This document shows, one piece after another, positions 1,470 to 37,804 of a stretch of DNA of 44,776 nucleotides (position 1 is the stretch's first letter; every line of letters starts with the position of its first letter). Location: NCBI GenBank assembly GCA_947302185.1, contig CAMYVI010000001.1:1-44776 (forward strand), given 5' to 3'. The stretch is from an uncultured Lachnospiraceae bacterium. GTDB lineage: Bacteria > Bacillota_A > Clostridia > Lachnospirales > Lachnospiraceae. The position numbers were made by a program, and so were the translations under genes. Under the pieces are notes generated by a model. That model saw only the letters and a list, made by a program, of their open reading frames with translations. It had not been told where the DNA came from and searched no databases.

Positions 1470-1486
1470 TAGCGAAGGCGATGAGT

Positions 1487-7400: not shown

Positions 7401-10400
7401 CGTGGTCAAAGGCTGCGCAGGGTTCCGAGTATCAGTGGGATACCTCTGTAATAATCCGCCCACCGAAGGGAACGACCGGTGAAGAGGCCAATGCTGCCGA
7501 CGGAAAATATACCATTTTCCTGGTAAACAGTGACGGAACTTATTACAACTATATCAAAAATGATTCAGCCGATAAGGCTAACATAAACAAAGAAAACGAG
7601 CTTCATTTTGAGTATTCGAACGACAGTATTCAGACGATGGACAGCACTGTGGAAATCGTGATTGATACAATCCGTCCGGTCGTAACGTACAGCGTGGGAA
7701 CCGGAGGGAAGGAGTTCGAAGACGATAATGAATATGCGTATTTCGGCGAAGACTTTACGGAGACGCTTCAGGTAAATGAAAAGAACTACAAAACCGCAAA
7801 AATCAATGAACAGGGAGACGAGTTGTCTCCGGTCAGCTTCATGGAAGTCCATTCCTTTAACAAGAGCACGGTCGCGGATCCGGATCCTTCAGACCCGGAT
7901 GATACCGGAGTCACTTGCGTAGAGGCGGACGACGTCATTAATTACAGCTGGGCACGCCTTGATGAGGGAATATACCGGGTCAGTGTATCCGGGACGGATC
8001 TTGCGGGAAACAGGCCTGTTTACAAAATCGGTCCGGCGGGGACGAATATCGATTCGGACAGACGGATCGCTGAGGACGTCAATAAGAAGAATCAGCAACA
8101 TAACTATGTACCGTTCAACACGAAGTATAAAGTGTTGGATAAATCTGCGCCGGAAATATTGGATTCCGATTTAGCAGCTTCGCATAAGGTCAATTCAGGA
8201 CTAACGTTCGACAGTATCCATTCTTCCGCTTCACTTGACCTGTTCGTCCGTGACAAGTATACCGGGCTTTACAGTGTGGAGACGGTTCTTTTCGACGGTG
8301 GCGGAAGCAAGTACGGAGACAGCTCCGGAGAGATAGAGTTTTATGATGTTTCGAAGAGAAGCGGATCCAGAGAAGAATGGGGGGCTGACCTGACAGAGAA
8401 TCCGATTACGTCCGAGTTTACGTGGGACATAACAGATACCGGCAGCTATCTCAGACTGTTCGTTATCCTGGAAGATTTTGCCGGTAATGTCAGATGTTAT
8501 AAATATGACGCGGATACGGATACATTTGAGGATCTTGATCAGGACGGATTCGGAGACCTTGAGGCTCCGTACAGCTATTCCGAAGAGACTGCAGAGGATA
8601 TTATTGCCGCGATAACGGATGCTTCTGCATTTGCATTATTTGGCACGCCTGAACTTGACGTACGCTTCGAACAGACGAATAACGCAATAAGCAGGGCGAA
8701 GAAGGCGGAAGACGGCAGTTCGGAAATAGATTTTATTTATACGGATCGCTCCGAAGTCAGCATAATGATTAAGGATATGCCTGTCTCTGAACTGGCTCTG
8801 AAATTGACAAGGGAAGGCAGTGAAGAGGAGCCTGTCATATCCGTCTCTTCCGATGGATACGATACCGCGAACCATTGCTTTAAGTATAAGTGCGTCGGAA
8901 CTCATGCGGAAACGCTGCCGGCAGAGGAAGCCGAAGGCGGTGAAGAAGAAGGCAGCATGGAGAAGAGGACGTACAGGTTCAGCGCGGAAATCGACGCGGA
9001 CGCAACATACGAATTTGAGGCGTATGTTCCGGAGCTCCCGGAAGAAGCTGAGATAGCTGTGTCCTTTAGCAGCGGGCAGAATGCGCGAGAGAAGGATCTT
9101 GAGTCCTTAACAAACGAAAGAGAGATTTATGCGTCCGTATCTGACGGAGGACAGCAAAAAAAGATTTATCTTGTTAACGAAGAGCCGATTCGGGCAGAGG
9201 ATGCGGCCGCTTCTGTCGTCGGCATCCGTTACAGTGAAATATTCATCAAGGACACGACGGTCCCTGTTGCCAGTTACAGTATGCGCGTAGGTTATGAACC
9301 GTACAGGATTATTGATAAAGGCTACGGAAATGCATACTATTACGGGCTGCTTGACGGCGCCAACCCGAACATACCGATGACGGCGATTTTCGACATCTAT
9401 ATTGCCGAAAAAAACTGGTATGAAGCGGATGTGCCTCAGGTTGTTGTGCATAAGGACGCGGACGGGGACGGGAACCCGGAGACCGAGATGACAGGGCAGG
9501 ATGATAATAATTATGTCAGAACGACATCCTGGGCAAAAGAGCAGCAGGACGAGGGCTCTGTGTGGAAGTCGACCGTCATTATTGAGCCGTCGAAAACGAC
9601 AGCAGGCGATGCGGATGGAGTTTACACGATTTCTCTGAGGAACAGCGATGGAACGTACTATAACTATATAGCAAACGAGGAGGATGATAAGGCAAATATA
9701 AATGACTCTAATGAACTGCTGTATGAATATGATAAAGACAGCATTCAGAAGATGGATAGCGATCTGGAAATCGTGATCGATACGATCCGTCCGGTCGTGA
9801 CATACAGCACGGGAGTAAAAGGCAGAGAAATCGACAATGATAACGAGTATGCCTACTACAATGAGAACTTCACGGAAACTCTTTCCATTAAGGAGAGGAA
9901 TTTTGAAATTCTGCCGGAAGGTGCGGATTATCCGATAGGCTATCTGGAAGTTAACTCTTACTATAAGGAGACAGTAGTGGATGAGGATCCCGGACTGCCG
10001 GAGGATTCTTCCGTTGACCACCGTGTTGTAGAAGGCGACACATACACTTACAGCTGGCCGAGATCCGATGAAGGCGTTTACTGGATCCGTGTGCAGGGGA
10101 CAGACCTGGCAGGCAATAAAGTGATTTATCAGACGGATCAATATGCGCTTGACGCCGATAAGACCATGATCGACGATCTGAACGGAAAGAACGGGAACGG
10201 CACATTTGAAGCAAGACATAAAGTACTTGATAAGACGCTGCCCGAGATTGTGCGTTCGGGAGATAATTATTCCGGCCTGTTCCTGAATGATGTGCACAGC
10301 GCCGCAGACCTTGACCTTTTCGTGCATGACAAGCATTCGGGATTATATAGCGCGGAGGCCGTCCTCTTTGACGGAGGAGGTGCAAAATACGGAAACATTT

Positions 10401-13400
10401 CCGGCAATATTGTGTTCTATGATAAAATCGACAAAACGGGTACAAGAGAGGAATGGGGTGCGGATTTAACTGAAAACCCTGTTACTTCCGAGTTCAAGTG
10501 GAACATCACGGATACGGGAAGCTACCTCAGACTGTTCATAGTTCTTGAGGACTTTGCCGGAAACACGAAGTTCTATAAATATGACGCCTATGCTGAAAAA
10601 TTCATAGAAATCGATAAGGATGCATTTGCGGATCCGAGCGCTCCTTACCGCTACTCGGATGAAACACGGGATGAGATTATTGCCGCGATTTCCGATGCGG
10701 AAGCATTTGCAATCTACGGATCGCCCAATCTGGATGTCCGATTTGAACAGACTAATGATGCGATCAGCCGTGCAAAGCAGGTGACAGAGGATAATCAGGA
10801 AAAGACGGTAATAGATTTTGTCTGCACGGATCGTTCGGCGCTAAGCGTGACGATAGAGGATATGCCTGTTCCCGAACTGGTTCTGAATCTTGAGAAGCAG
10901 GACGAGGAAGGTGCGAATATCTTCCTGTCGGTTTCGTCGGTCCAGTATGATACCGATGCGCATTGCTTCAGGTACGGTGCTGCCGGCACAAAACCCGTGA
11001 CCCGGGAAGCGGGAGAAGATGAGGAAAAGAAACGGTACAGCTTCGGCACGGTTGTTGACGAGGACGGCGTTTATAACTTTACGCTCTTTGTTCCGAGGCT
11101 GCAGGGTTCTGCTGAAATACCGGTATCCATTACTTCCGGGACGGACGCTGATAAACAGGATGTATCTTCTCTGAAGAAAGAGAGCGACGTCTATGCGGTA
11201 GATGCGGACGGGAAGCAGGTACATCTTCTGAAAACGGAACCGTCCGATTCCGGCGTTCCGGGTGTCTGGTACAGCGAGGCGTTTATCAAGGATACCGTTG
11301 TCCCGGTGGCGAACTGCATTATCCCGGAGGATTATATGCCCAGCTTCCCTGCTGATGTACAGGGCGAAAGCGTGTTCTACTACGGACTTAAGGACGGTGT
11401 TGACGCAAATGCTCCGAAAGCAGCAAGGATGGAAGTTACGATCACCGAGGAGAACTGGTATGACTATGACGCTCCGAAGTTTATTATCAAAAGAAACGGT
11501 GAGGATGTAACGCAGAGCGGATATATAACTGTGAGCGGGTGGAAACTCGGACGAAACGGAAAGCAGAAAGCGCATACCGCTACAATTACGATCGATCCTA
11601 AGAAAGCGTCGGGACATTCTGCGGACGGCCGTTATACGATGCTGCTGTATAATTATGAGGATGGGACTTATTATAATTACAGAATCGGAGACGGCAAGTC
11701 CAACATTAATGATGCCAATGAATATGAATACATATATGAGGATAACGGGAATACCCTTCGGGTGAATGAATCGATCGAGTTCGTTATAGACACGATTCGT
11801 CCGAAAGCGGTCTACTCGGTATCTTCCGGCGATGTCAGAGAATATGCCGATGATGCATATGCATATTATAAGAACAACTTTGTGGAGAAGCTCACGGTAT
11901 ATGATACGAATATTTCAACACGTTTCGTAACCGCAATATCCGGGCAGAAGCCGAGGACGGACAGCAGCACGCAGCCGGTGACGAAGACACTGAAGCCTCA
12001 GATCGATGAGGCCGGTACGACTTACACATACAGCTGCGACCGGAGGGAAGAAGGAGTTTACTGGATCACGTCCCGGGGAACAGACCTGGCGATGAACAGA
12101 ATTGAGTTTACAGGAGGTACTAACGCAAGAAACAGAGATAAGGAAAAAGCGGCGCAGGCAAGCGCTGCCGGCTCGAGGACGAATTATGTATTCGAGTCTC
12201 TGCCGAAAGTAATAGACAAGACGGCCCCTGTCGCCGAATACCGGATAACCGGGACAAAAGATAAGTGCCACTATGATAAATATGATTTCTACAACAAGGA
12301 TATTGAAGCGATATTCGATCTGACCGAGGTCAATTTCAGAGTGGGAAATATGTCATTTACAGGCACATTCGGAAATGATAGTCTGACGGGACCGACCGCG
12401 AACGTCGGCAAAAAAGATTCTTACAGATACCGGGCATATGTCAAAGCGGATTCCGGGCATGAAGGACACCACAGATTTACAATCAGCGGGACGGATAAGG
12501 CAGGAAACGCGATTATCGTAACAAGAGGAACCGGTGCGACGGATAACGATCCTGCGAAGCAGACAGGTTCGTACACGACAGGCATAAAAGTAATGGATGT
12601 AACGGCTCCCGTTTATGTTGTGTCGGAAATGACAAAGCCGAAAAGTTCGGAAAATATTGAAGGAACGACTGCATATTACAATACGGATGTTAACATGGCA
12701 TTTACGGTGACCGATACGAATCTGGACCGTGATAAGATCAGGACAGCCGTGACTTCCGCAGCACCGGATGATTACTCATCAGCGGAACCGCCGTGGAAGA
12801 AGATGCAGATCGGAAAGTCAACGGTTAATTTCAATTCCTCGACGAGATATCCGCTTTCCGCTTCGGCGTCGAATAACGGCGTTTACCGGTTCGAGATACA
12901 GGGCGAGGACGCGGCAGGCAACCTGCTTGTTCCGTCATCGGCCGAGAGGAACAAGAAGTCTTATCAGGCGACTGTGCGGCACGGCAACGGTGAATTCTGG
13001 ACGTATAACAAAGTCATAGATACGATTGCACCTTCCGGACATATCGATATCGGTAATTATTACAGTGCCGATTTGAGTTTGAGAGGCGGACTCGGAGTTA
13101 CAAAATCCGCGCCTTACAGGGAGGAGACGAGCGCATCCGGAAATATCAGGGTGACGCTTGACCATTCACCGGTCAAAATAGAGTATCCGGTCATATCTTC
13201 AATAGGAAGTCTGTCGCAGAACGATAATGTGACGGGGTATGCGTATATGGCTTCCCGGGACTTCCGGACAGACGGTCAGCAGGTGTTCAGACTGGAAATC
13301 ACCCTGACGGACAGGGCGGGTAACACGACGAATACAATCAGAACCAATTCGATTTATCTGGATGTTGAGGCTCCGGTAGAAGATGAAAATGCACCTGCCA

Positions 13401-15670
13401 TCAGTATAGTTGCACAGGCAAACTCTGCTTCGCACGGACCTCTTGACCAGCCGCTCTTTAACGGCGACGTACCGTTCAACATCATAGTATCCGATCCGAA
13501 TCAACCTTCGGACAGCGGAGGAACAAACGGCAGAAGTTCGGGACTGGATCAGGTGTATTACACGATAACAGTAGACGATGTTGTGATTCTTACAGAGTCG
13601 CTGAGAGAAGACGGCAGAATGGATCCGGACCAGAAAGAGTGGGATGGCAATTATGACGATCCGTCACTGTTTTACGCCATCAACACGGTCAGGACAGCGG
13701 CAAGCTCATTGAACAACAACAACATTGTTCTGACTGTATACGCGACAGATCATTCGGGAAATAAGAGTCAGCGTGAATACTATTTCGGTATCGACATTGT
13801 GAATCCGACGATCAGCGTTACGTATGATAATAATGACGCTCAGAACGATAAGTATTTCAAAGCCGATCGCACTGCTATAATTACGGTGACAGAACGGAAT
13901 TTCGACCCGTCGAAGATCACGATCGTGACGAACGGAGGAAGCCAGTCTGACTGGGAGTACATCAATAATGGCGGCAACGGCGATAATGACATGTGGATCA
14001 AGCGTATAACATATTCTGAGGACGGTGATTTTACATTCGAGATTTCCGGAGCGGATCTTCTGGATAATCCGGCAAATGATATAAGCTATGACGGTGTTGC
14101 GACGAAGGAGTTCACAATAGACAAGACTGCTCCGGTTCTTACCCTGACATTCGATCTTGAAAAAGGATATCGGGACAGCTTGTACTTTAACCAGACGCGC
14201 ACGGCTGTTGTCAAAATAGTAGAGCATAATTTCAACTCATCGGATGCAAAAGTCGAGTACCCCGGAACAATTGCGCGAGGCACAGCGGGCGTTGCGAAAG
14301 CCGGCAGCTGGAGTGACAGCGGGGACGAACACAGTATGCAGATTGTTTTTGATGAGGATGCAGACTATGTTGTAACGGCGGAGTATACGGATCTCGCGGG
14401 CAATTTTGCCGAGAAAGTGATCTCAGATAAGTTCACGATTGATAAAACAGTGCCGGAGATTGACTACAACCATGATACTGTTGAAAACGGGCATGCATAC
14501 AGCGCTGATATCGCACCGCAGATATTCTTCAGTGATACGAACTATAATCCCGACAGCGTAACGTTTGTGTTGAACGGAATTAAATTGAAGGACGGGAAGA
14601 CTCTGGAGCTGGCTCCGATCATAAATAACGAAGACGGTTTCGGAGGTTCACTCAGTTACCTAAATATTGCACCGCTTGCAGATAATGATGATATTTATCA
14701 TGCTGTAGGAACGATCGTTGACCGGGCGGGCAATGAGAAGACCGTAGACTTTACTTTCTCGGTCAATCGTTTCGGATCAACATGGGATTACAATGACGAT
14801 GCGAAGACGGAAAGCCTGACAGGGTGGTATACGAATGAGGAAAATGATGTTTATTTAAGGGAGGTGAATGTCAACACAGTAGCGGAGCAAACGGTAGATA
14901 TGATCCATGACACCGATTACAGAGCTCTTGTAAAAGGCGAAGACTATTCGGTGAAGGATGTAAGTACTGATTCCGGCTGGAAGGCTTATGTATACAAGTT
15001 CCATGCCAAGAATTTCTCCGCCGAAGGAAAATATACTATAGTAGTACACTCTAAGGATTCGTCCGGTAACGAGAACAGTAATGCAAGTATAAAGAGCCGG
15101 GACGGAGCTAAGGAAGTGCCTCTTTCATTCACGGTGGATAAAACGTCGCCGTATGCCGATCTGAGGGATGTGGATAAGAGCATTACGAGGTACAATGCGG
15201 CTTCTATTAAGGCGTATGCGGTCGTAGATGATAATCTCAGCGGCGTCAGCAAGGTAGAGATATATGTCTATCCTGAGAATGCTTCGGCATCTGACGCACA
15301 TGTTACTACTCCGATCATCTCATATTCAAACGAGTGGAAAGATGATGTTTACAATGATGAACTGGATCAGGTGCTCGCGGCAAACGACGGAAAGATACCG
15401 TTTGAAATAAAGGAACACGTAAGTCCGCAGACAGTGCGGATCGCATCCTATGATAACGCCGGAAATGTTTCCGGGCTGCTGCGTTCTGACGGAGAAACCG
15501 AGAAGGGTGAAATAGTCTGGAAGAATGTTCTTGTTACGAGAAACGTCGTATCTCAGGTGTTCTACAACAGGACTGCACTCATCGCTCTTCTTGGGGCAGG
15601 CTTGTTGCTTGCTCTTATCCTGTTCCTGGTCCGAAGGCGGAAAGAAAGGGAGAACGAGCAGAATTTGTAA
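1487..15670 (+). CDS. Giant secreted, membrane-anchored Ig-like repeat surface protein (~4.7k residues)
   Basis: This single open frame of about 14.2 kb encodes a surface protein. Two in-frame ATGs (1481, 1487) exist; GAAGG at 1474-1478 is 8 bases from 1487 but only 2 from 1481, so 1487 is preferred. Residues 1-31 are a signal peptide (basic start, hydrophobic core, cleavage likely after VTAYA). An acidic low-complexity region follows (about residues 35-165), then Ig-like domains. Four long similar modules occupy about residues 876-3575, each with a GSYLRLF...DFAGN segment, a YY.GL...KNWY segment, a V.VIDTIRPV.TYS segment and a GTDLAGN segment. The rest is shorter Ig-like domains, many starting with DKTAP-like linkers. 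The C-terminus has one transmembrane helix (ALIALLGAGLLLALILFLV) and a basic tail; there is no LPXTG sorting motif. Likely an adhesin or envelope-spanning scaffold; the target is unknown. Confidence 0.9.
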   Translation: MKTVIDKFKRMLSVICIITLLTENVLPVTAYAVEQDAIQLDEISEEETAVGDAVLNDDSLEDTEVQTEYPEEEIYQESESPEADIAQGSESPEADIAQGSESSEDEYLTENAGTDEEEFVQSETPDDLYDTYNDEDIIETEPPEQEYLLGVPDEEPLPDNPDGDGESAPEIGDVTASVCELTIDDDGNEIYTEIDRGDTGTSYYLVADYAIDESAGLDVQVNWTVFKSGGSTSGSGSGAKYEWSFPENGVYEILCEVIVTDQYGNTNQASDTTSIVIDSFSYDFRIVNSNDRNTPGQVMYGDTVEFALSRAAEDEAEVSMYVERIEEEGIYKEPLSGDGNVFEYTFSESCMEYVFYAECTYVYGDYTFTQEIVRITPDVYEVKDITLSVFDDLNDKAVRVDEAGVIGRLNTAENRAKYAVIAADIPSLTVSERNAILNGTYANQEDAYDMLQVDENGDVTFPTDKSGIYEYTVCILKCDDENVDYESVLKDITLHVRYEVLIGVDVELSRDGDGNPVKISKVSDGGKEAFFPDGYFFLRGVQSEYGNVSLEISGNFEYAVSDMGNDIPVGRAAGETGCPFILTGDDAIHYYINHYPDFSVEEIKGDILPNGIDDGEECILDLTGSDKTVVADDGNLNTEYTLTNLPGIKLVLGPDVQCSKNPETEAFYLAPGDDNKLIGIEATEGTEEVRLLTYKEGDDGTSVLDEPEFVFQDGENIAGNLYIQKGAKYYGPFSVKYLHDSEAPVLREGGLSVEVTNGSESRSFLDFLREKLGNSSIIDDDIKIEPDGSVVIKKNRVVTISVDMFDDLSGVSGDSGICMTTQKAETWSDLENMTYDTTVSAENGTDGVSLNYYVYLRLRDNAGNTEYRYIYAQLLFDEIAPELDDGSGITFNPQKPQATVNLGITEAHSGLFKTEVYLYDCVENEDGTVADAILCEDGVYGTERKRRVWLSGTMNGYETDSGIVYEEAEDPGESSGHYEEQYVLKDQYGSYLRLFVKVEDCAGNVSYYISDGTDFEKLETEEDTFINTDEERVEQIKKSTGKSFAVLFGKPRLVICREGVSDAIVRTNETDPEKNDYIYNSFCEITVKAENIPVPDMTVSLERTDGGELFSVFESVAYDAENHCFTYKFCKDDIVLPHTGWTIGSDGDYVLKAYVPDIKDEKGNVHKRIAIDMDIMDKESPEDDGVSVKERVLKEEETYTDSFIIDTTSPKVRYDLNTDDAASTFTDAEGKSFYYGLENGNGDPVPAVLSVTVDEKNWYTCDKPEIVIYKDGTDDASVINVKDAAYNGYITVSDWSSENDGEYTATVTINAKNGGRINHDIDGCYRIAVINSRNTYYNYKITKEDASGNPEETGILEFEYEDPDTSSRIDRTSQILIDSVRPVAVYNIDVEGNEIDGDNEYAYYNKNFAESVVIREKNFIVAGADQEDYINVRSSRKGDVTVADEDSSEEVPSSYEVRDDEREFVWNRTASGVYWITVSGTDLAGNKLIYEYDEDNSCLLATDVAKIAEINQKNNGDGKHSFETKHKVLDKEAPVLSFSEAANTGLIFNEDHTKARLTLGVYDKCYDLYAVEAVLFDGINQGGENDAIKYYDSKIVTGSRDEWKTYEVDNHPGYSVIEWDLDDHKGSYLRLFISLTDFAGNTQSYTYDFGQAMPFENLNQPYRYSEAERERIIAAIKDTEPFALYGSPELDVRFTQNKDAISRAGKVQQDGEEKTVIDFIFTDRTGVSVTVKDIPRSEMYLKFAKEGTDDPLLHIVSEGYVTDRHCFEYGDSTADGSGEEPGDDGDENDSGTFRFSAAIPADRSGDGVYSLEAFVPTLPYNEIKVAIKSGADEGHLSDDKDVHAYSDEGEVKLLKEEHTEHDGTSGILYSESFIKDFTVPVAIYSVHDGFSPFYINDGIGTSSYYYGLSDGVSEDSPMAAVIDITIKEKNWYEVDAPQVVVYKDADGDGNPDEEITKKAGEDTNNNYVKIKTWSKAAQGSEYQWDTSVIIRPPKGTTGEEANAADGKYTIFLVNSDGTYYNYIKNDSADKANINKENELHFEYSNDSIQTMDSTVEIVIDTIRPVVTYSVGTGGKEFEDDNEYAYFGEDFTETLQVNEKNYKTAKINEQGDELSPVSFMEVHSFNKSTVADPDPSDPDDTGVTCVEADDVINYSWARLDEGIYRVSVSGTDLAGNRPVYKIGPAGTNIDSDRRIAEDVNKKNQQHNYVPFNTKYKVLDKSAPEILDSDLAASHKVNSGLTFDSIHSSASLDLFVRDKYTGLYSVETVLFDGGGSKYGDSSGEIEFYDVSKRSGSREEWGADLTENPITSEFTWDITDTGSYLRLFVILEDFAGNVRCYKYDADTDTFEDLDQDGFGDLEAPYSYSEETAEDIIAAITDASAFALFGTPELDVRFEQTNNAISRAKKAEDGSSEIDFIYTDRSEVSIMIKDMPVSELALKLTREGSEEEPVISVSSDGYDTANHCFKYKCVGTHAETLPAEEAEGGEEEGSMEKRTYRFSAEIDADATYEFEAYVPELPEEAEIAVSFSSGQNAREKDLESLTNEREIYASVSDGGQQKKIYLVNEEPIRAEDAAASVVGIRYSEIFIKDTTVPVASYSMRVGYEPYRIIDKGYGNAYYYGLLDGANPNIPMTAIFDIYIAEKNWYEADVPQVVVHKDADGDGNPETEMTGQDDNNYVRTTSWAKEQQDEGSVWKSTVIIEPSKTTAGDADGVYTISLRNSDGTYYNYIANEEDDKANINDSNELLYEYDKDSIQKMDSDLEIVIDTIRPVVTYSTGVKGREIDNDNEYAYYNENFTETLSIKERNFEILPEGADYPIGYLEVNSYYKETVVDEDPGLPEDSSVDHRVVEGDTYTYSWPRSDEGVYWIRVQGTDLAGNKVIYQTDQYALDADKTMIDDLNGKNGNGTFEARHKVLDKTLPEIVRSGDNYSGLFLNDVHSAADLDLFVHDKHSGLYSAEAVLFDGGGAKYGNISGNIVFYDKIDKTGTREEWGADLTENPVTSEFKWNITDTGSYLRLFIVLEDFAGNTKFYKYDAYAEKFIEIDKDAFADPSAPYRYSDETRDEIIAAISDAEAFAIYGSPNLDVRFEQTNDAISRAKQVTEDNQEKTVIDFVCTDRSALSVTIEDMPVPELVLNLEKQDEEGANIFLSVSSVQYDTDAHCFRYGAAGTKPVTREAGEDEEKKRYSFGTVVDEDGVYNFTLFVPRLQGSAEIPVSITSGTDADKQDVSSLKKESDVYAVDADGKQVHLLKTEPSDSGVPGVWYSEAFIKDTVVPVANCIIPEDYMPSFPADVQGESVFYYGLKDGVDANAPKAARMEVTITEENWYDYDAPKFIIKRNGEDVTQSGYITVSGWKLGRNGKQKAHTATITIDPKKASGHSADGRYTMLLYNYEDGTYYNYRIGDGKSNINDANEYEYIYEDNGNTLRVNESIEFVIDTIRPKAVYSVSSGDVREYADDAYAYYKNNFVEKLTVYDTNISTRFVTAISGQKPRTDSSTQPVTKTLKPQIDEAGTTYTYSCDRREEGVYWITSRGTDLAMNRIEFTGGTNARNRDKEKAAQASAAGSRTNYVFESLPKVIDKTAPVAEYRITGTKDKCHYDKYDFYNKDIEAIFDLTEVNFRVGNMSFTGTFGNDSLTGPTANVGKKDSYRYRAYVKADSGHEGHHRFTISGTDKAGNAIIVTRGTGATDNDPAKQTGSYTTGIKVMDVTAPVYVVSEMTKPKSSENIEGTTAYYNTDVNMAFTVTDTNLDRDKIRTAVTSAAPDDYSSAEPPWKKMQIGKSTVNFNSSTRYPLSASASNNGVYRFEIQGEDAAGNLLVPSSAERNKKSYQATVRHGNGEFWTYNKVIDTIAPSGHIDIGNYYSADLSLRGGLGVTKSAPYREETSASGNIRVTLDHSPVKIEYPVISSIGSLSQNDNVTGYAYMASRDFRTDGQQVFRLEITLTDRAGNTTNTIRTNSIYLDVEAPVEDENAPAISIVAQANSASHGPLDQPLFNGDVPFNIIVSDPNQPSDSGGTNGRSSGLDQVYYTITVDDVVILTESLREDGRMDPDQKEWDGNYDDPSLFYAINTVRTAASSLNNNNIVLTVYATDHSGNKSQREYYFGIDIVNPTISVTYDNNDAQNDKYFKADRTAIITVTERNFDPSKITIVTNGGSQSDWEYINNGGNGDNDMWIKRITYSEDGDFTFEISGADLLDNPANDISYDGVATKEFTIDKTAPVLTLTFDLEKGYRDSLYFNQTRTAVVKIVEHNFNSSDAKVEYPGTIARGTAGVAKAGSWSDSGDEHSMQIVFDEDADYVVTAEYTDLAGNFAEKVISDKFTIDKTVPEIDYNHDTVENGHAYSADIAPQIFFSDTNYNPDSVTFVLNGIKLKDGKTLELAPIINNEDGFGGSLSYLNIAPLADNDDIYHAVGTIVDRAGNEKTVDFTFSVNRFGSTWDYNDDAKTESLTGWYTNEENDVYLREVNVNTVAEQTVDMIHDTDYRALVKGEDYSVKDVSTDSGWKAYVYKFHAKNFSAEGKYTIVVHSKDSSGNENSNASIKSRDGAKEVPLSFTVDKTSPYADLRDVDKSITRYNAASIKAYAVVDDNLSGVSKVEIYVYPENASASDAHVTTPIISYSNEWKDDVYNDELDQVLAANDGKIPFEIKEHVSPQTVRIASYDNAGNVSGLLRSDGETEKGEIVWKNVLVTRNVVSQVFYNRTALIALLGAGLLLALILFLVRRRKERENEQNL
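1718..1792 (+). repeat. 33-bp tandem repeat in the acidic N-terminal region
   Basis: Two perfect 33-base copies (1718-1750 and 1751-1783) followed by a 9-base partial copy. Each encodes SESPEADIAQG in frame. Identity at DNA level points to recent duplication; copy-number change would keep the reading frame and only lengthen the disordered acidic segment after the signal peptide. Confidence 0.95.
4112..12206 (+). repeat. Four ~2-kb long coding repeats in the giant surface protein
   Basis: Approximate units are 4112-6063, 6064-8128, 8129-10218 and 10219-12206, delimited by the recurring KVLDK.AP linker (a variant, LFDEIAPE, opens unit 1). Markers recur in the same order in each: GSYLRLF...D.AGN, PY.YSE....IIAAI.D, a sentence-like DVRF.Q..DAISRA, the YY.GL...KNWY block, then IDTIRPV. 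Units 3 and 4 are the closest pair (both have EEWGADLTENP.TSEF); unit 1 is the most divergent. The DNA around the IDTIRPV motif is nearly identical in units 2 and 3, mostly differing at third positions. Confidence 0.85.
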
Positions 15671-15816: not shown

Positions 15817-15840
15817 GAATAAATGAAAGGAGTATGCATT

Positions 15841-17565
15841 ATGGCGGAGTATTTGTCACCAGGCGTGTACGTAGAGGAGTTTGAATCCGGTTCCAAACCT
15901 ATGGAGGGAGTCGGAACCAGTACAGCCGGCTTTATCGGCCTTGCGGAAAGGGGCCCGGTGGGCGGTATACCACAGCTTGTAACCAGCGCAGCTGAGTTCA
16001 AGCGTATTTACGGCGGTTATTTATCGGAGAATGCTTTCGGTGAATATCGTTTCCTCGCGTATGCTGTAGATCAGTTTTTCATCAACGGAGGTTCGCGCGC
16101 ATTTATTGTTCGTGTAGCCCCGTCAGACGGTGTCTGTGCCGCCGGTAACAGCAAGGTTCTCGCAATTACAGCGAAAAATCCGGGAGCCTGGGGCGATGAT
16201 ATTCGCATTAATGCGGCACCGGCCAGCAAAGCGAAGACACAGATCCTTGAGGTTCTTGACACGGATGCAGGCAAACGTTACATCGTAAAGAACGGTGATG
16301 GCTTCAATACCGGCGATGTAGTTGCATTTAATGACGGTGAGACAATCACTTATAACAAAATCGTTAAGAGCCAGGGAAATATCCTGACACTCGAGAATGA
16401 TCTGGACGATACATGCGTTGATAAAGAACTTCTTCCTACAAAGGTTCTCTCAACCTGCGAATTCAGCCTGGATGTAAGATATGGCGATGTAGTAGAAGTC
16501 TATGATAACCTCAGCTTCAATATCGAGGCATCGAATTATGTTGATAAGAAGCTGTCCAAATCTGATTTGGTCAACGTTTCCTATATCGGAGAAGAAGGCG
16601 ACACAATCGTTTCTCCGTTTGAGATGATTGCAGGATCAGACAAGGCAGTTGCTACGCTTGTCCTTTCAGGCGGCAAGGACGGCAGCGTTAAGGGCATCAG
16701 CGCTGCTGATTTCATCGGAGAGGATGGCGGAGCAGGCCACAGAACAGGTATCCAGTCATTCCTTGACAATGATTCTGTTGCAATTATGGCAGTACCGGGT
16801 ATTACAGATCCTAACGTACAGCTCACACTGGTTGCACATTGCGAAAACCTTGGCAGCCGTTTCGCAGTTCTGGATATGCCGAGAGAAGCAAGAAAGGTCG
16901 AAGATCTTATCAGCCATCGCGACATCTTTGATACTGCATATGCTGCAATGTATCATCCGTGGCTCAGTGTATTCGATCCGCTTGACAAGAAGAACATTGC
17001 TGTACCGCCGTCAGGTTCCGTACTTGGTATTTATGCAAGAACCGACGCCACAAGAGGTGTTCATAAGGCTCCGGCGAACGAAGTGGTACGCGGCTGCGTA
17101 GGTCTTGACAGCCAGTTCACAACAGGTGAGCAGGATATTCTGAATCCGAAGGGCGTCAACCTGATCCGTGCATTCCCGGGACAGGGAATCCGTGTATGGG
17201 GCGCAAGAACAGCAACCAGCAACTCTTCCTGGAGATATGTCAACGTAAGACGTCTCTTTATCTTTATCGAAGAGTCTATCCGTGCAAATACGAACTGGGC
17301 AGTATTTGAACCCAATGATGAAGTTCTTTGGATCAGAGTTCAGAGAACGATCAGTGTCTTCCTGGATGGCCTCTGGAGAGGCGGCTCCCTGTCCGGTACA
17401 TCACCGGAGGAAGCTTTCTTTGTTAATATCGGCCGTGACACCATGACTCAGGATGATATTGACAACGGAAGACTTGTATGCGTAATCGGTGTCGCTCCTG
17501 TGAAGCCTGCTGAATTCGTAATCTTCAGGATTTCTCAGAAGACAGCTGATTCTGATGCTGGCTGA
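15841..17565 (+). CDS. Contractile sheath protein of the injection system (Afp2-4/phage tail sheath family)
   Basis: The 574-residue product is the sheath that contracts to drive the inner tube. It opens with MAEYLSPGVYVEEFESGSKP, the classic sheath start, followed by STAGFIGLAERGP. The C-terminal third holds the conserved sheath core: NPKGVNLIRAFPGQGIRVWG, then the WRYVNVRRLFIFIEESI stretch, and a final region ending with PAEFVIFRISQKT. An in-frame ATG at 15823 is rejected as start because the AAAGGAG ribosome site at 15826-15832 lies inside it and is ideally placed for 15841. Length and motifs fit a full-length family member. It is the first gene of the CIS structural block, after its own AT-rich promoter region, and is followed by RNA hairpins before the tube gene. 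Only one sheath gene is seen, whereas Afp has three. Confidence 0.97.
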   Translation: MAEYLSPGVYVEEFESGSKPMEGVGTSTAGFIGLAERGPVGGIPQLVTSAAEFKRIYGGYLSENAFGEYRFLAYAVDQFFINGGSRAFIVRVAPSDGVCAAGNSKVLAITAKNPGAWGDDIRINAAPASKAKTQILEVLDTDAGKRYIVKNGDGFNTGDVVAFNDGETITYNKIVKSQGNILTLENDLDDTCVDKELLPTKVLSTCEFSLDVRYGDVVEVYDNLSFNIEASNYVDKKLSKSDLVNVSYIGEEGDTIVSPFEMIAGSDKAVATLVLSGGKDGSVKGISAADFIGEDGGAGHRTGIQSFLDNDSVAIMAVPGITDPNVQLTLVAHCENLGSRFAVLDMPREARKVEDLISHRDIFDTAYAAMYHPWLSVFDPLDKKNIAVPPSGSVLGIYARTDATRGVHKAPANEVVRGCVGLDSQFTTGEQDILNPKGVNLIRAFPGQGIRVWGARTATSNSSWRYVNVRRLFIFIEESIRANTNWAVFEPNDEVLWIRVQRTISVFLDGLWRGGSLSGTSPEEAFFVNIGRDTMTQDDIDNGRLVCVIGVAPVKPAEFVIFRISQKTADSDAG

Positions 17566-18209: not shown

Positions 18210-18424
18210 AACAGCTGCTTCCTGCCTCGCCGATTGCAAGTGGCCCAAAGTCACATCTTCTGTGTAATCGGGTGAATTATTCTATAGTAAACGCATTTAT
18301 GATTTCACTGCATAAGCCTTTTCCACAGCAAGACTACCTGCCCGCGGGAAACAGGCTTTATTGTATGATAAACGTTTACTAAATGCGCTTCCTATAATAA
18401 TTTATATAGAAAGGAATAGAAATA
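18210..18424 (+). promoter_or_regulatory. Structured intergenic region, probable promoter for the baseplate operon
   Basis: This 215-base gap holds no ORF. A consensus TATAAT lies at 18393-18398, though with no clear -35. Upstream, TAGTAAACG (18285-18293) is an inverted repeat of CGTTTACTA (18373-18381), and the adjoining CGCATTTA (18292-18299) is an inverted repeat of TAAATGCG (18380-18387), so two mutually exclusive or pseudoknotted pairings are possible. Between them, AAGCCT (18314-18319) can pair with AGGCTT (18353-18358), followed by TATTGTAT. The arrangement could be a leader or operator region; its function is unknown. Confidence 0.4.
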
Positions 18425-18793
18425 ATGTTCCAAACTGAATTTCCGTTTACGCTACCAAAAGGCTATGTTGACCGGGATGGAAATCTTCACAGGGAGGGAA
18501 CCATGCGGCTTGCTAACGCAGCCGATGAGATACTTCCGTTAAAAGACTCCAGAGTACAGCAGAATCCGGGATATCTCACTATTATTATTCTGGCAAGAGT
18601 GATAACAAGGCTGGGCTCGTTGCCGGCCGTGGATACCAGGATTGTTGAAGGGCTGTTTACCCCCGATCTGGCATATCTGCAAGATCTTTATCAGCGTATC
18701 AATGCGATGGAGATCCCTGTTTATAAGGGAATCTGTCCTCATTGCGGCAAGGAAATTGATATCCCGGTAAATTTTACAGAAGCCGGGGTATAA
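18425..18793 (+). CDS. Tail assembly chaperone-like protein (Mu gp41-like), zero-frame product
   Basis: The 122-residue product resembles the phage tail assembly proteins (Mu gp41-like) found in CIS loci: MFQTEFPFTLPKGYVDRDGN, then HREGTMRLANAADEI, and a helical middle with PGYLTIIILARVITRLG. In phages such proteins keep the tape measure soluble while the tube is built around it; here the same role is inferred. The C-terminus has a CPHC motif (CPHCGKEIDIP) that may bind metal, although only one such pair is present. A ribosome site (AAGGA, 18411-18415) lies 9 bases before the ATG. Its last codons overlap a second reading frame in -1 register and contain a slippery heptamer, so a longer fused product of about 183 residues is predicted too. 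Confidence 0.85.
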   Translation: MFQTEFPFTLPKGYVDRDGNLHREGTMRLANAADEILPLKDSRVQQNPGYLTIIILARVITRLGSLPAVDTRIVEGLFTPDLAYLQDLYQRINAMEIPVYKGICPHCGKEIDIPVNFTEAGV

Positions 18794-18807
18794 ATCTTTA
18801 TCCGGCT
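18769..18807 (+). promoter_or_regulatory. Predicted programmed -1 ribosomal frameshift signal
   Basis: In the chaperone reading frame, bases 18769-18775 read A AAT TTT, a canonical X XXY YYZ slippery heptamer. After a 5-base spacer (ACAGA), AGCCGG (18781-18786) pairs with CCGGCT (18802-18807) around a 15-base loop that contains the zero-frame stop (18791-18793). Slippage by -1 enters the DUF6760-like frame exactly. Confidence 0.8.
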
Positions 18808-18975
18808 GATAAAATCTATGAGGAAACGAGTTTTATAGCTTATTATATGCACTGGAGTCGCGAGGAGATTTTCGGCTTAAATCATATGGAACGTGTTCGC
18901 TGGTGCAGTGAAATTTCCAAGATAAACAGAAAACTGAATGATGAGCCGGAGCCGTCGCTCCTGCTTCCAACTTAA
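18775..18975 (+). CDS. DUF6760-like CIS protein, expressed as -1 frameshift extension of the chaperone
   Basis: This -1 frame encodes about 66 residues beginning YRSRGINLYPADKIYEETSF and continuing IAYYMHWSREEIFGLNHMER, with WCSEISKINRKLNDE near the end. The pattern YPAD.IYEE..FIAY..HW...EI..L.H.ER..W..EIS.IN..L matches, as I recall it, the small DUF6760 proteins found next to CIS tube genes. The frame is open from 18760 (after a TGA at 18757), but contains no ATG, GTG or TTG before the conserved start of the family; the first ATG (18847) lies inside the conserved core. The frame is exactly -1 to the upstream gene and a full frameshift signal lies in the overlap, so it is best read as the T-like half of a G/GT-type chaperone pair. 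A rare ATA start at 18790 is the main alternative. Confidence 0.75.
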   Translation, partial: YRSRGINLYPADKIYEETSFIAYYMHWSREEIFGLNHMERVRWCSEISKINRKLNDEPEPSLLLPT

Positions 18976-19017
18976 ATGAAGAATGTACGATAAGCCGGAG
19001 TTTCGCTCCGGCTTCCA
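18940..19017 (+). repeat. Pair of imperfectly duplicated hairpins before the second tube gene
   Basis: Copy 1 (18940-18969, in the last codons of the DUF6760-like frame) and copy 2 (18989-19017) share most of their ~30 bases (GAT[G/A]AGCCGGAG...GCTCC[T/G]GCTTCCA). Both fold: copy 1 as a 9-pair stem with one mismatch (18944-18952 with 18957-18965), copy 2 as a perfect 9-pair stem AAGCCGGAG/CTCCGGCTT (18992-19014) with loop TTTCG. Neither has a U-tract. The second ends 6 bases before the AAGGGA ribosome site of the next gene, so an effect on translation or on mRNA processing is possible. Confidence 0.65.
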
Positions 19018-19030
19018 TGAAAGGGATTCC

Positions 19031-19453
19031 ATGTCGACTATTTCAAGATATCCGGTGCTGAATGCGGCGTTCAAGGTGAATATCGGTACACAGACATACA
19101 GTTTTACCAAAATCAGGAATATATCCGAAGTTGTCGAAACAGAAACTGTTCAGGAGGGCGGTAATAATTGGACTGTTCATAATCTGGCAAAGCCTACAAG
19201 CTCTTCACATAAGCTGATTCTGGAACGTGGATTTCTGGTAACCGGAAATGATCCCGGCTTAACTGCCGGGTCGCGTGTTTATGATGTGACAATCATGGTT
19301 ATGGAGCACGGTTCTGTTAAAAAGTCTTATTCATTTGAAGAAGGGATCGTTACCAACTGGGAAATCTCCGACTTCGATGCTCTTCAGGGTCAGGTTGTTT
19401 ATAATACGGTCGAAATCCTTCATAGCGGCCTTCGAGAGGGTAAGGTAAATTAA
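19031..19453 (+). CDS. Second tube-like protein (baseplate-proximal tube initiator, Afp5-like)
   Basis: The 140-residue product starting at ATG 19031 (MSTISRYPVLNAAFKVNIGT) resembles the gp19-like tube family: the middle has HKLILERGFLVTGNDPGL and the end has WEISDFDALQGQVVYNTVEILHSGL, the same closing beta-strand layout as the main tube protein. CIS loci commonly have a second tube paralogue that starts the tube on the baseplate, and the place between the tube and LysM genes fits that. An upstream in-frame ATG at 18983 would add 16 residues but would run through a stable hairpin (18992-19014) and has no ribosome site, while AAGGGA sits 4 bases before 19031. The next gene starts 2 bases after the stop, suggesting translational coupling. 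Confidence 0.85.
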   Translation: MSTISRYPVLNAAFKVNIGTQTYSFTKIRNISEVVETETVQEGGNNWTVHNLAKPTSSSHKLILERGFLVTGNDPGLTAGSRVYDVTIMVMEHGSVKKSYSFEEGIVTNWEISDFDALQGQVVYNTVEILHSGLREGKVN

Positions 19454-19455
19454 CT

Positions 19456-22400
19456 GTGATTACCGGGTTAAAAACGCAGGCTGTGCGGCTTGGTTCAAGT
19501 TATCGGCTGCCAGTTCACATATTACAGTGGTCAATTCCGGCCAGACTGGGAGGAGATGCTTCATTTGCAGAGGACATAATGGCAAAGTACTTAACCTCGC
19601 ATGAGAGGCGGTCTTCGTCAGTCGATTTTGTGCATCCGAAATTCGGGGAGCGTGACGCAGGAAATGTACTGAGCGAGCTGTCCAGGCAGCTTGTTCAGTT
19701 GAACCGTATAAGGATACAGATGAACATGCATAATTATCGGATTATGCAGAGATATTCTTTGAGTGTCAGCACCAGATGCGAACAGCTCCTCAATTTTCTT
19801 GAGATGAATACAAATGTTTACAGCGGCGTCTCACAGGAGGCTGTTCGTGAACTTGTACAAATTCATCAGAAACTGAAAGAACAGATAGCGAGTGCGGGAA
19901 CTTCGGGAAAAACGGCAGATAGCCCGTCTTTCGGAAAATCATCCGCTCCGGATGAGGATGAAAGTTCCCTGATATTGAAGATTTTGACAGCAGCGTCGAA
20001 AGGCAACGGAACAAGAGAGCGGTATATCCGCAATCTTGTCAGACGCATGCAGAGTGCAGGGGGAAGTGCGAGCGGTGATTCTCATTCTTCGCAGGCAAGA
20101 GTATTTCTCAGGCAGGCGGAGTCAGAATTATTTCTGGTTTCAGACAGAGAACGTGGCGGGTCCATGACTATCTGGATGTCTGAAGATGCAAAAAAGTTTT
20201 TTTGGAAGATTCAGCGGGCTCCGGAACAGATCCGGAACATTTTTCTGAATGCCGGAGGTTTTTCTTCTCTGATAGCTCTGGAAAAAACATTAAAGACTAT
20301 GGATACACGCTCATTTCATACATTTGCCGAAGCGCTTATGGAGCGTGTTTCGATGATTATTTACGAGACGGCAGGTTCCGGTAGGAACGGTAATCCGGAC
20401 ACAGAATACGGGGACGAGGAATGGTTGAACCTCCGCCGCAGAATGGAGAGCATCGAAGAGTCATCTCCCGGGTCTGTTTTACAGACCGAAAACGATGCGT
20501 TTCACTTTATCGAAACGATTACAGACGAAGAGTGGAATAGATTCCGCACGGAGTTGATCCATTCGGATCGAGAGGAATCACTCAAAAAACACCTGCCTGA
20601 ATTATACACAGCCCTTACGGGAACGGTATTAGTGACGGCAGGAAAGAGATTAACGGATTCTGAGACAAGCCCGGTGATGTCGGAACTTACAGCGTCAGAT
20701 GATGGTATGAGGGAAGAACCGGGATTAATGAACGATGGCTCTGTCTCCCGCGATGCTGCCATCAGTATCTTGCGGAATATGGATAGTGAAACATTCCGCA
20801 CGGTTATCCGTCCTGTGCTTGAACGCATGACGACCTCCGTATCAGAGACCGTACAAAACGGGGAAGCACCCGAAGGAGACCGTGAGACCGTTTACACAAG
20901 GCATTATAATACGGCGGAAATGCTGATAAAGGCATTTGCCGAAAGAGATACGGAATATGTTTATGAATCTGAAAGACTGAACACACAGCGTATATCGGAA
21001 ACAAATTATGTACAACGGATGCTGTCAGCATCGGAGAAGGTATGGGAATCATTTTGCACGGAAATGATATATGCTGACAGAAACGGAGAACTCAGGAAAC
21101 AGGCACCTGAATTGTATCAGGCTCTCGTGAAAGTAATTGAAGGTTCAGAGATTTTGCCGGAACAGTCCGGCGCCATCAATAGACGCACATCTGAAGGAAG
21201 CCGTGCTGCTGAATCGGAAGGAAGCCGTGCTGCCGAATCGGAAGGGAGCCGCGTTGCCGAATCGGAAGGGAGCCGCGCTGCTGAATCAGAAGGAAGCCGT
21301 GCTGCTGAATATGAAGTAATCGAGACCATCATAAATACGATGGATCATGAAACATTCAGGAAAGTTGTTTTACCTCTTTTTAATGATATCTCAGAGATGA
21401 ATACCATTGAAATGACGGAAAGGGAAGAGTATGTGAACGGAAGCCCCGGAGCTTCGGAACTGTCTGTCCGGCAGTTCGCTATGGAAAAGGTGTTCAATGT
21501 TCTTGCCGAAAAGAGCGGTGTCGTTCCTTGGAAGGATTCTTTTTCAGAGTATCTGATGCAGTTCTTCGAACAGCACTCCGATGAGGACTGGGAGATTTTC
21601 CGCTCCGAACTGATTTATGCGGACGATAAAGGGGAATTAAGAAAAGAACTCCCTGAATTGTATGAGGCCTTTACGGATGCATATTTGAATGCTTCGACCC
21701 GGCAAAATAAGGAGACCGGTGAAGAAAGCGCGGAGCAGGCCGGGTTACTTGCGGAAGAATATGAAAAGCGAAAGGAAGCTTTGGATTCAACCGAAGGGGG
21801 TCAGGACGCAGAAGAAACGGGGGCAGCTTCCCAGACCCGGGACGAACGCGGTAACGAAGACAGGGAAACGGAGATAATCCATCAAAAGGAATTGCTGTTT
21901 AAGGTTCTGCGCGAGGAGCGGGGAACTATGCGGATCCTGCGCACACTGATCATTGAGGCTATACGAAATATCGCGATAATCCGGGAAAATCAGCGGGAAT
22001 TCATGACGCTTGCAGATTCTGTTATGAATCTGACTAATGAACAGTGGAATGAATTTAAACGCGATGTACGTGTACTTCGCAAAGAAGATCTGGATATCAG
22101 ACAGCTCATTCCGGAAACGGTCTTTCGGGAGGCTGTCAGCAAGTCTAAATACAGGACACTGGAGGAGGACGTACATCGGACAGAGGAAAATCTTGAACGA
22201 CAGGAAAGCCGGCAGGAGATCCTGATGTCGGGAATCCGTATGTCAGCCGAGAAGATGGAACTCCTCAGGATCCTTCGGGAAGAGACGGAAAGGCGTGATA
22301 CTGTATTTACGGATATCGGCAGAAAGTTGTTTGTGAATACGATCCTTCGAAATTCGGAAGCCGGACATCTTATACGGCCTTCGATCCGGGAAATGACCAG

Positions 22401-23088
22401 CGAAGGGCGGGAAAGCTGGCGGAGTTTTGTGACGGAACTACTGCACATTGACAGGAATGCTTCCGGTGACGGCGCACATGCCGGCACAGGGTACTTCGGC
22501 AAACTGGCTGACCAGTACGGGCTTTCCTTCAGAAATGAGACTTCCGGAACAGGCACCGATTCTAATCGTGAAGCAGCCCTTCATGTTATGGAACAGAGAC
22601 GCCAGGAACGAATTCTTGACAGAGAGACCATAATCAGAAGAGAACGCGAAATAGAGAGGGAACTGGCAGAGAATGCGCAAACTCAGGTGTTTCGACTGCT
22701 GCCGTCCGAGTCCGCTGCAATGTATCCCGAGAGTATTTCCAATATACCCGGACAGACTACTGTTGATATAACCGTTCAGAGACCCGGACCGAATCGTGAT
22801 ACCGCAGCTCAGATCAGAAGCGCACAGGAGGAGCTGCGAAGAGCAGAAAGAAGAAATCAGACAGAAGCCGTTCATGATATTGAATTTGAGACAGTGAGGC
22901 GTACTGTTTCCGATCAGAATAACAGTACGGAGCTTAAGAGAGTTTCGGAAGTTGTTGAACGTCATGAGAGAGTGATTTCCGGCTTGTTGAAGGCGCACAA
23001 AGCGGATGCGGATCGTGATCTGCCGCGGGAAGTCATAAGGAAGATAAACGACAGGATGCGGATGGAGCGGCTTCGCGGCGGATTCTGA
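19456..23088 (+). CDS. Large repeat-rich helical CIS protein, candidate tape measure
   Basis: This 1210-residue protein starts with GTG at 19456, 2 bases after the preceding stop. I do not recognise a named family. It is charged and mainly helical, with no signal peptide or membrane helix. A module of about 150-185 residues recurs: a MD..TF......LER segment (near residues 285, 440, 630) and an E.W..F..ELIY.D..GELRK..PELY.A segment (near 356, 525, 708, weaker near 858 and 980). Residues 579-618 hold five SEGSRAAE repeats. The last third (from about 900) looks like coiled coil with many ERRE/RERE runs. Its place between tube initiator and LysM protein, its length and its helical repeats make a length-setting role possible; the adjacent chaperone/frameshift pair supports that. 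It could instead be an accessory baseplate or regulatory protein. Confidence 0.7.
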   Translation: MITGLKTQAVRLGSSYRLPVHILQWSIPARLGGDASFAEDIMAKYLTSHERRSSSVDFVHPKFGERDAGNVLSELSRQLVQLNRIRIQMNMHNYRIMQRYSLSVSTRCEQLLNFLEMNTNVYSGVSQEAVRELVQIHQKLKEQIASAGTSGKTADSPSFGKSSAPDEDESSLILKILTAASKGNGTRERYIRNLVRRMQSAGGSASGDSHSSQARVFLRQAESELFLVSDRERGGSMTIWMSEDAKKFFWKIQRAPEQIRNIFLNAGGFSSLIALEKTLKTMDTRSFHTFAEALMERVSMIIYETAGSGRNGNPDTEYGDEEWLNLRRRMESIEESSPGSVLQTENDAFHFIETITDEEWNRFRTELIHSDREESLKKHLPELYTALTGTVLVTAGKRLTDSETSPVMSELTASDDGMREEPGLMNDGSVSRDAAISILRNMDSETFRTVIRPVLERMTTSVSETVQNGEAPEGDRETVYTRHYNTAEMLIKAFAERDTEYVYESERLNTQRISETNYVQRMLSASEKVWESFCTEMIYADRNGELRKQAPELYQALVKVIEGSEILPEQSGAINRRTSEGSRAAESEGSRAAESEGSRVAESEGSRAAESEGSRAAEYEVIETIINTMDHETFRKVVLPLFNDISEMNTIEMTEREEYVNGSPGASELSVRQFAMEKVFNVLAEKSGVVPWKDSFSEYLMQFFEQHSDEDWEIFRSELIYADDKGELRKELPELYEAFTDAYLNASTRQNKETGEESAEQAGLLAEEYEKRKEALDSTEGGQDAEETGAASQTRDERGNEDRETEIIHQKELLFKVLREERGTMRILRTLIIEAIRNIAIIRENQREFMTLADSVMNLTNEQWNEFKRDVRVLRKEDLDIRQLIPETVFREAVSKSKYRTLEEDVHRTEENLERQESRQEILMSGIRMSAEKMELLRILREETERRDTVFTDIGRKLFVNTILRNSEAGHLIRPSIREMTSEGRESWRSFVTELLHIDRNASGDGAHAGTGYFGKLADQYGLSFRNETSGTGTDSNREAALHVMEQRRQERILDRETIIRREREIERELAENAQTQVFRLLPSESAAMYPESISNIPGQTTVDITVQRPGPNRDTAAQIRSAQEELRRAERRNQTEAVHDIEFETVRRTVSDQNNSTELKRVSEVVERHERVISGLLKAHKADADRDLPREVIRKINDRMRMERLRGGF
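21190..21309 (+). repeat. 24-bp coding minisatellite, five copies
   Basis: Five tandem 24-base units each encode SEGSRAAE (one unit has SRVAE). Units differ only at a few, mostly third, positions. Copy-number changes would stay in frame and lengthen or shorten a flexible linker between two helical modules of the large repeat protein. Confidence 0.95.
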
Positions 23089-37364: not shown

Positions 37365-37415
37365 CGTGCAGCGGTACATGAAGTATCCTTAACGAGTATT
37401 TAAAGGAGAATGATA

Positions 37416-37802: not shown

Positions 37803-37804
37803 GT

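What the first reader, a model, noticed from the sequence alone, without database searches (positions are those of the whole stretch)
18769..18975. Complete -1 programmed frameshift signal links the CIS tail chaperone to a start-less DUF6760-like frame
Seen: the slippery heptamer A AAT TTT is in the correct phase of the chaperone gene; a 5-base spacer and a 6-pair GC-rich stem-loop (18781-18807) follow; the downstream conserved frame is exactly -1, overlaps the upstream gene and has no ATG/GTG/TTG before its conserved core. Known: tail assembly chaperones of many phages (lambda G/GT and, in Mu, gp41/42) are made as short and frameshifted forms. Inference: the DUF6760-like segment is the T-like part of a ~183-residue fusion, and CIS keep this phage mechanism. 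I am not aware of a description for injection systems.
Basis: partly seen in the sequence, partly recalled or inferred. Interest (0 to 1): 0.87.

Follow-up and report, generated by a model that had tools for sequence, protein, structure and literature searches.

The report
Frameshifted tail chaperone in injection machine
A bacterial injection machine related to phage tails appears to make one of its assembly chaperones in a short and a long form by letting some ribosomes slip back one base, as phages such as P2 do, and the slip site is preserved in many related machines.

Summary
A AAT TTT (18769-18775) is in phase with the 122-aa chaperone gene. The -1 frame after it encodes DUF6760 (PF20546, E 1.5e-17) with no ATG/GTG/TTG before its core. 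In 79 of 80 relatives fetched by chaperone similarity the heptamer is in phase and DUF6760 follows in the -1 frame; the exception, L068, lacks both. Synonymous sites at the heptamer are frozen (codon identity 1.00 against 0.30/0.57/0.74 expected), while the overlapping stop codon and any start codon vary. Of 132 distinct junctions, 117 of 117 with a -1 DUF6760 carry an in-phase slippery run (at least 96 by the strict rule); 0 of 15 others do. The chaperone fold resembles T4-like hub-assembly proteins and Mu gp41. DUF6760 is remotely similar to P2 GpE, which P2 makes by -1 frameshifting, and the sheath-tube-chaperone order matches P2. The stem-loop exists but is unproven. Outside gut Clostridia the run is mostly G-rich, and start-codon initiation remains a real rival there. 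No frameshift product has been observed.

The parts
18425..18793 (+). Tail assembly chaperone (TAC-N-like), 122 aa, ending in a Cys2 zinc-ribbon-like CPHC and NFTEAGV-stop
   Evidence: PHROG 508 tail assembly chaperone E 8.1e-6; fold like T4-like hub-assembly proteins and Mu gp41
18769..18775 (+). Slippery heptamer A AAT TTT, in phase with the chaperone
   Evidence: in phase in 79 of 80 relatives; synonymous sites frozen
18776..18780 (+). 5-nt spacer
18781..18807 (+). Possible stem-loop AGCCGG/CCGGCT with the chaperone stop in its 15-nt loop
   Evidence: core five pairs mostly kept but no covariation; RNAalifold predicts no pairs
18791..18793 (+). Stop TAA of the short form; the overlapping -1 codon is ATA (18790-18792)
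18775..18975 (+). -1 frame after the slip: 66 codons plus TAA; DUF6760 (TAC-C-like)
   Evidence: 3-helix model with pLDDT 88.7 for 18790-18972; remote match to P2 GpE
15823..17565 (+). Tail sheath
   Evidence: Pfam PF04984, PF17482
17724..18152 (+). Tail tube protein
   Evidence: Pfam PF06841 E 8.4e-43
19031..19453 (+). Second tube-like protein
   Evidence: Pfam PF06841 E 7e-12
19456..23088 (+). 1210-aa Glu/Arg-rich repetitive protein just upstream of the baseplate genes; possible client of the chaperone (inference only)
   Evidence: no Pfam or PHROG match, no transmembrane-like window

Best explanation
The two overlapping frames form one recoded gene. Most ribosomes translate the chaperone to TAA 18791-18793 and give a 122-aa protein. 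A fraction, with AAT and TTT in the P and A sites, slip back one base to AAA and TTT and continue in the -1 frame, giving a 183-aa fusion whose C-terminal 66 residues are DUF6760. By analogy with P2 E/E+E' and lambda G/GT, the short form coats an elongated luminal protein while the fusion recruits tube subunits, and their ratio matters for assembly. Shown: the signal, its phase, its selective conservation, the frame relation, and the family and fold relations. Inferred: that slippage happens, its rate, the role of the stem, the client, and the chaperone function.
For: In-phase heptamer and -1 DUF6760 in 79 of 80 relatives; L068 has lost both. Over 81 genes chosen without regard to the heptamer, codons 115-117 have synonymous codon identity 1.00 (expected 0.30, 0.57, 0.74). 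Stop codon changed 18 times and start availability 13 times on the tree. 117 of 117 -1 junctions have an in-phase slippery run, against 0 of 15 others; background 57 of 14481 codon positions. A_AAU_UUU falls in H_HH.U_UU.Y, listed among the most efficient heptamers in E. coli (PMC4066793, passages seen). PHROG 508 matches 32 of 32 chaperones; fold matches to T4-like hub-assembly proteins, best named E 1.6e-6, and to Mu FS-gp41, E 0.011. P2 GpE: hhalign probability 83.6%; 5 of 33 members hit PF06528, best E 0.021. The gene order sheath, tube, chaperone/-1 frame is that of P2.
Against: No fusion peptide, reporter or ribosome-profiling data. The stem has no covariation (203 of 500 shuffles reach its score) and RNAalifold predicts no pairs. 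28 of 83 AAATTTT junctions do offer an ATG/GTG/TTG before the core, and ATA is the overlap codon in 61 of 83. The relatives are related by descent, so counts are not independent. The GpE link is remote, single-sequence comparisons with Mu gp41 and P2 E gave nothing, and DUF6760 has no significant fold match.
Confidence: 0.88

Rival explanations
1. DUF6760 is a separate protein started by termination-reinitiation at the codon overlapping the chaperone stop (ATA here; ATG, GTG or CTG in some relatives).
For: With a TGA stop the overlap gives ATG or GTG in some relatives (8 of 83 AAATTTT junctions, 8 of 26 G-run). RefSeq draws separate DUF6760 genes there, in Nostoc even from ATA. In the E. coli assay G runs were suspected of acting as Shine-Dalgarno sites for low-level initiation at AUA (PMC4066793, passage).
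Against: In the AAATTTT class the overlap codon is GTA or TTA in 9 of 83, stop and start availability change often while the heptamer does not, and a Shine-Dalgarno-like string precedes the overlap in 10 of 83. Reinitiation does not explain the frozen AAATTTT.
Confidence: 0.07
2. Outside the gut Clostridia the GGGGG[AG] run is a Shine-Dalgarno site for DUF6760 rather than a slip site; frameshifting would then be a Clostridia and phage-contig feature only.
For: 21 of 26 G runs are GGGGGA[AG], not strict heptamers. Nine of 26 offer a start codon before the core. G_GG.G_GG.U was the least shifty heptamer in E. coli without stimulator (PMC4066793, passage).
Against: 17 of 26 G-run junctions have no ATG/GTG/TTG before the core; the run is always in phase and inside the open -1 frame; the frame relation is the same.
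Confidence: 0.45
3. The DUF6760 frame is not expressed, and the arrangement is a relic.
For: Some loci have lost it (L068, L107), so it can be dispensable.
Against: DUF6760 is conserved as protein in 117 -1 frames (HMM hits), with near-invariant E, HW, H, R residues across phyla.
Confidence: 0.02

Closest known systems
Phage P2 gpE / gpE+E' (PF06528 GpE)
   Same: Sheath, tube, chaperone, -1 frame order; annotated -1 frameshift; C-terminal segment with the FHW...MS..E...W pattern similar to DUF6760
   Different: P2 slips on a T run; its tape measure gene T follows directly; N-terminal parts not alignable
Phage Mu gp41 / FS-gp41
   Same: Fold match of the N-terminal part; weak Pfam Gp41_Mu hits in 7 of 32
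   Different: Recorded as a -2 frameshift
T4-like hub-assembly proteins (PHROG 150, T4 gp26/gp51 type)
   Same: Best fold matches of the chaperone; phage-like contigs L130, L131, L142 pair such a protein with a -1 DUF6760 and in two a tape measure gene follows
   Different: Larger (258-272 aa); T4 itself is said to use separate genes (title of PMID 34826709 seen in a reference list; content recalled)
Lambda gpG/gpGT
   Same: Short and frameshift-extended chaperone; ratio about 30:1 (PMC5009743, passage)
   Different: Heptamer G GGA AAG (recalled); sequences were not compared here
DUF6760 (PF20546)
   Same: Full family match
   Different: Described as a family of unknown function, here read as the C-terminal part of a frameshift product

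Membership tests
-1 programmed ribosomal frameshift | X XXY YYZ heptamer in phase with the upstream gene | tested here: met
   A AAT TTT in phase
-1 programmed ribosomal frameshift | Downstream coding frame is -1, overlaps and is open across the heptamer | tested here: met
-1 programmed ribosomal frameshift | Heptamer conserved at synonymous sites | tested here: met
-1 programmed ribosomal frameshift | Stimulatory RNA structure downstream | tested here: inconclusive
   Stem present, Ala120 always GCC (77 of 77); z -1.14, no covariation, no RNAalifold pairs
-1 programmed ribosomal frameshift | Fusion product detected, dependent on the heptamer | not testable with these tools
   needs proteomics or reporter
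Phage tail assembly chaperone pair (TAC-N / TAC-NC) | N-terminal part homologous to known TACs | tested here: met
   PHROG 508 in 32 of 32; fold matches
Phage tail assembly chaperone pair (TAC-N / TAC-NC) | C-terminal part homologous to a known TAC-C (P2 GpE) | tested here: inconclusive
   hhalign probability 83.6% over 30 columns; best Pfam E 0.021; no significant fold match
Phage tail assembly chaperone pair (TAC-N / TAC-NC) | Lies between tube and tape measure genes | tested here: inconclusive
   Follows sheath and tube; then a second tube and a 1210-aa protein with no family match
Termination-reinitiation (ATGA-type) gene pair | Start codon ATG/GTG/TTG at or near the overlap | tested here: not met
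   None before the core in the window
Contractile injection system locus | Sheath, tube, baseplate, AAA ATPase and Pvc16-type terminator | tested here: met

The most novel reading that the evidence does not exclude
A ratio-setting -1 frameshift of the tail chaperone is an ancestral and nearly general feature of contractile injection systems in several bacterial phyla, perhaps also in haloarchaea, with the slip site switching between A AAT TTT, T TTT TTY and G runs. DUF6760 is the T-like domain, and the chaperone pair handles a luminal tape-measure-like protein or cargo, so frameshift rate could influence particle length or loading.
Probability: 0.4. Interest if true: 0.82.

Novelty: new member of a known kind. 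Interest (0 to 1): 0.66.

Why it matters
It would give DUF6760 a function, show that a non-viral machine keeps a phage recoding switch under selection, and point to a gene that gene callers mostly split or miss. Particle length control in CIS is unsettled: one S. coelicolor study notes that a tape measure gene is absent from its cluster (PMC12237407, passage), and others report tape-measure-related effectors (PMC11126660, PMC13277306, passages). A conserved chaperone pair makes the client question directly testable.

Tried and rejected
Stem-loop as a proven element: core pairs are kept in 69-74 of 74 sequences, the outer pair in 27 of 74; 203 of 500 shuffles reach the covariation score, RNAalifold finds no pairs, and Rfam has no match in 18400-19100. 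For this I aligned 74 of 81 distinct sequences, leaving out L023, L024, L033, L049, L052, L101 and L102.

Direct relation of the chaperone to single sequences of Mu gp41 and P2 E by hhalign: nothing. Solved structures: no sequence match of use, no significant PDB fold match for the chaperone, one weak row for DUF6760. Tape measure identity of the 1210-aa protein: no family match, so it stays a guess. No GpE in 299 Bacillota-like genomes. No match of either protein in 50,697 phage records; the first viral-contig scan gave none, later ones 14 and 12 loci.

The tree count of zero third-base changes in the heptamer codons is by construction, since those 81 sequences were picked for having the heptamer; the unbiased figure is. 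The G-run class was defined after I had seen the junctions. The in-frame 158-aa chaperone-DUF6760 protein P0005 is one metagenomic sequence and was not used.

Full report
What is there. The 122-aa ORF 18425-18793 ends ...AAT TTT ACA GAA GCC GGG GTA TAA. AAATTTT (18769-18775) is in its phase. The -1 frame is open from 18760 to 18975; its 66 residues after the slip match DUF6760, PF20546, E 1.5e-17. No ATG/GTG/TTG precedes the core. The surroundings are a contractile injection system: sheath, tube, second tube-like protein, CIS tube/LysM protein, hub, spike, gp25, baseplate J, Tail_P2_I, AAA ATPase and Pvc16 domains. No whole genome is held for the window.

Relatives. In 79 of 80 the heptamer is in phase and DUF6760 follows in the -1 frame (HMM check on the 78 distinct ones, L070 being a copy of L069). 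L068 has TAAGCTTT instead and no DUF6760.

Selection on nucleotides. In the 81 genes (80 plus window) codon 115 is GTA 58 or ATA 23, codon 116 AAT in 80 (AGC in L068), codon 117 TTT in 81. Synonymous codon identity is 1.00 at each, against 0.30, 0.57 and 0.74 expected from codon use. Ala120, in the 5' arm of the possible stem, is GCC in 77 of 77 Ala codons (identity 1.00, expected 0.29). The next highest values in the gene are 0.95 at F2 and Q45. On a tree of 81 heptamer-bearing sequences the stop codon changed 18 times and the availability of a start 13 times, Ala120 had no third-base change, other Asn codons had 18-28 and other Phe codons 3-10, median 25.5 over well-conserved degenerate codons. 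The zeros at the heptamer codons in that tree are by construction.

Wider sample. Adding plasmid records, five further genomes from samples of 299 and IMG/VR contigs, an HMM search found 132 distinct chaperone junctions. In 117 DUF6760 is in the -1 frame, in 14 it is absent nearby, and in one (second copy in L103, a chaperone ORF that stops early) it is in frame 0. In-phase slippery runs inside the open -1 frame within the last 14 codons occur in 117 of 117, against 0 of 15 of the rest; background is 57 of 14481 codon positions, 0.05 expected per junction. Classes: AAATTTT 83, GGGGG[AG] 26, TTTTTTC 3, TTTTTTT 1, GGGTTTT 1, GGGAAAC 1 (Haloferax), CCCGGGG 1, and GGGAAAG at -40 in L142. Only 5 of the 26 G runs are strict heptamers, so at least 96 of 117 meet the strict rule. 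Junctions without ATG/GTG/TTG between the run and the core: 55 of 83, 17 of 26 and 2 of 8. The sequences share descent, so these counts are not independent events.

Start codon or slip. The overlap codon in the AAATTTT class is ATA 61, GTA 6, CTG 5, GTG 4, ATG 4, TTA 3. The ATA majority could be read as AUA initiation, but it also follows from TAA/TAG stops and keeps a hydrophobic residue in the fusion, and GTA and TTA are not starts. Shine-Dalgarno-like strings precede the overlap in 10 of 83 of this class and in 18 of 34 others. In the E. coli survey PMC4066793 (passages seen), H_HH.U_UU.Y, which includes A_AAU_UUU and U_UUU_UUC, is among the most efficient motifs; the same paper suspects G runs of acting as Shine-Dalgarno sites for AUA initiation. 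Hence high confidence for the AAATTTT class and an open verdict for the G class.

What the two halves are. All 32 chaperones tested match PHROG 508, tail assembly chaperone, best E 7.5e-10. The AlphaFold2 model (pLDDT 86.5) matches T4-like baseplate hub assembly proteins in BFVD (7 matches at E up to 0.001; best named E 1.6e-6) and Mu FS-gp41 at rank 15, E 0.011. DUF6760 models as three main helices (pLDDT 88.7), with no significant fold match; its weak top hit and the second-ranked chaperone hit come from the same phage, Myoviridae sp. ctgXL3. Profile comparison with P2 GpE gives probability 83.6%, E 8.2e-6 for that single pair, 30 columns. In P2 this segment is annotated as made by -1 frameshift, in the same order after sheath and tube. 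In phage-like contigs L128, L131 and L142 the gene after the DUF6760 frame matches tape measure proteins (E 3.3e-82, 9.1e-37, 5.1e-11).

Prior knowledge. Searches of the open-access library found no report of frameshifting in CIS chaperones: DUF6760 in no paper; CIS with ribosomal frameshift in 2 papers, with programmed frameshift in 0, with tail assembly chaperone in 9, with frameshift and tape measure in 7. I saw passages of one of the two and of one of the nine; the rest only as listings. Word finds for frameshift in three CIS papers gave none (PMC8894135, PMC8894136, PMC12237407), none in PMC11126660 and PMC13277306, and in PMC10020575 a find for words beginning with frame gave only reading-frame and in-frame. 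Subscription papers are mostly not held, so absence from print is not shown.

Mechanism. Most likely tandem slippage of tRNA-Asn and tRNA-Phe on A AAT TTT, giving minor 183-aa fusion beside the 122-aa chaperone. The rate, the stem's role and the client are inferred. The 1210-aa protein 19456-23088 sits just upstream of the baseplate genes, the position described for the S. davawensis tapemeasure-related effector (PMC11126660), but has no family match.

Noticed in passing
window 1481-15670 +: A 4729-aa ORF upstream of the sheath; the only Pfam match is an Ig-like Big_13 repeat near its C-terminus.
   Followed up: no
window 19456-23088 +: 1210-aa Glu/Arg-rich repetitive protein without Pfam or PHROG match, in the slot just upstream of the baseplate genes.
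   Followed up: partly
window 37410-37802 and 37739-40165 +: DUF4280 protein overlapping by 64 bases the start listed for a HAMP plus TPR protein; an MORN-repeat protein lies just upstream at 35013-37364.
   Followed up: no
L087, L088, L103: Cyanobacterial plasmids carry a chaperone copy that lacks both DUF6760 and a slippery run; in L088 and L103 a second copy follows.
   Followed up: partly
L107: Streptomyces plasmid with GGGCGA instead of the G run and no recognisable DUF6760 in the -1 frame.
   Followed up: no
L114-L117: Deinococcus plasmids: chaperone without DUF6760; in L114 and L116 a different small gene is annotated across a TGA overlap.
   Followed up: no
L130, L131, L142: Phage-like contigs pairing a larger T4-type hub-assembly protein with a -1 DUF6760-like frame and A AAT TTT or G GGA AAG.
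   Followed up: partly
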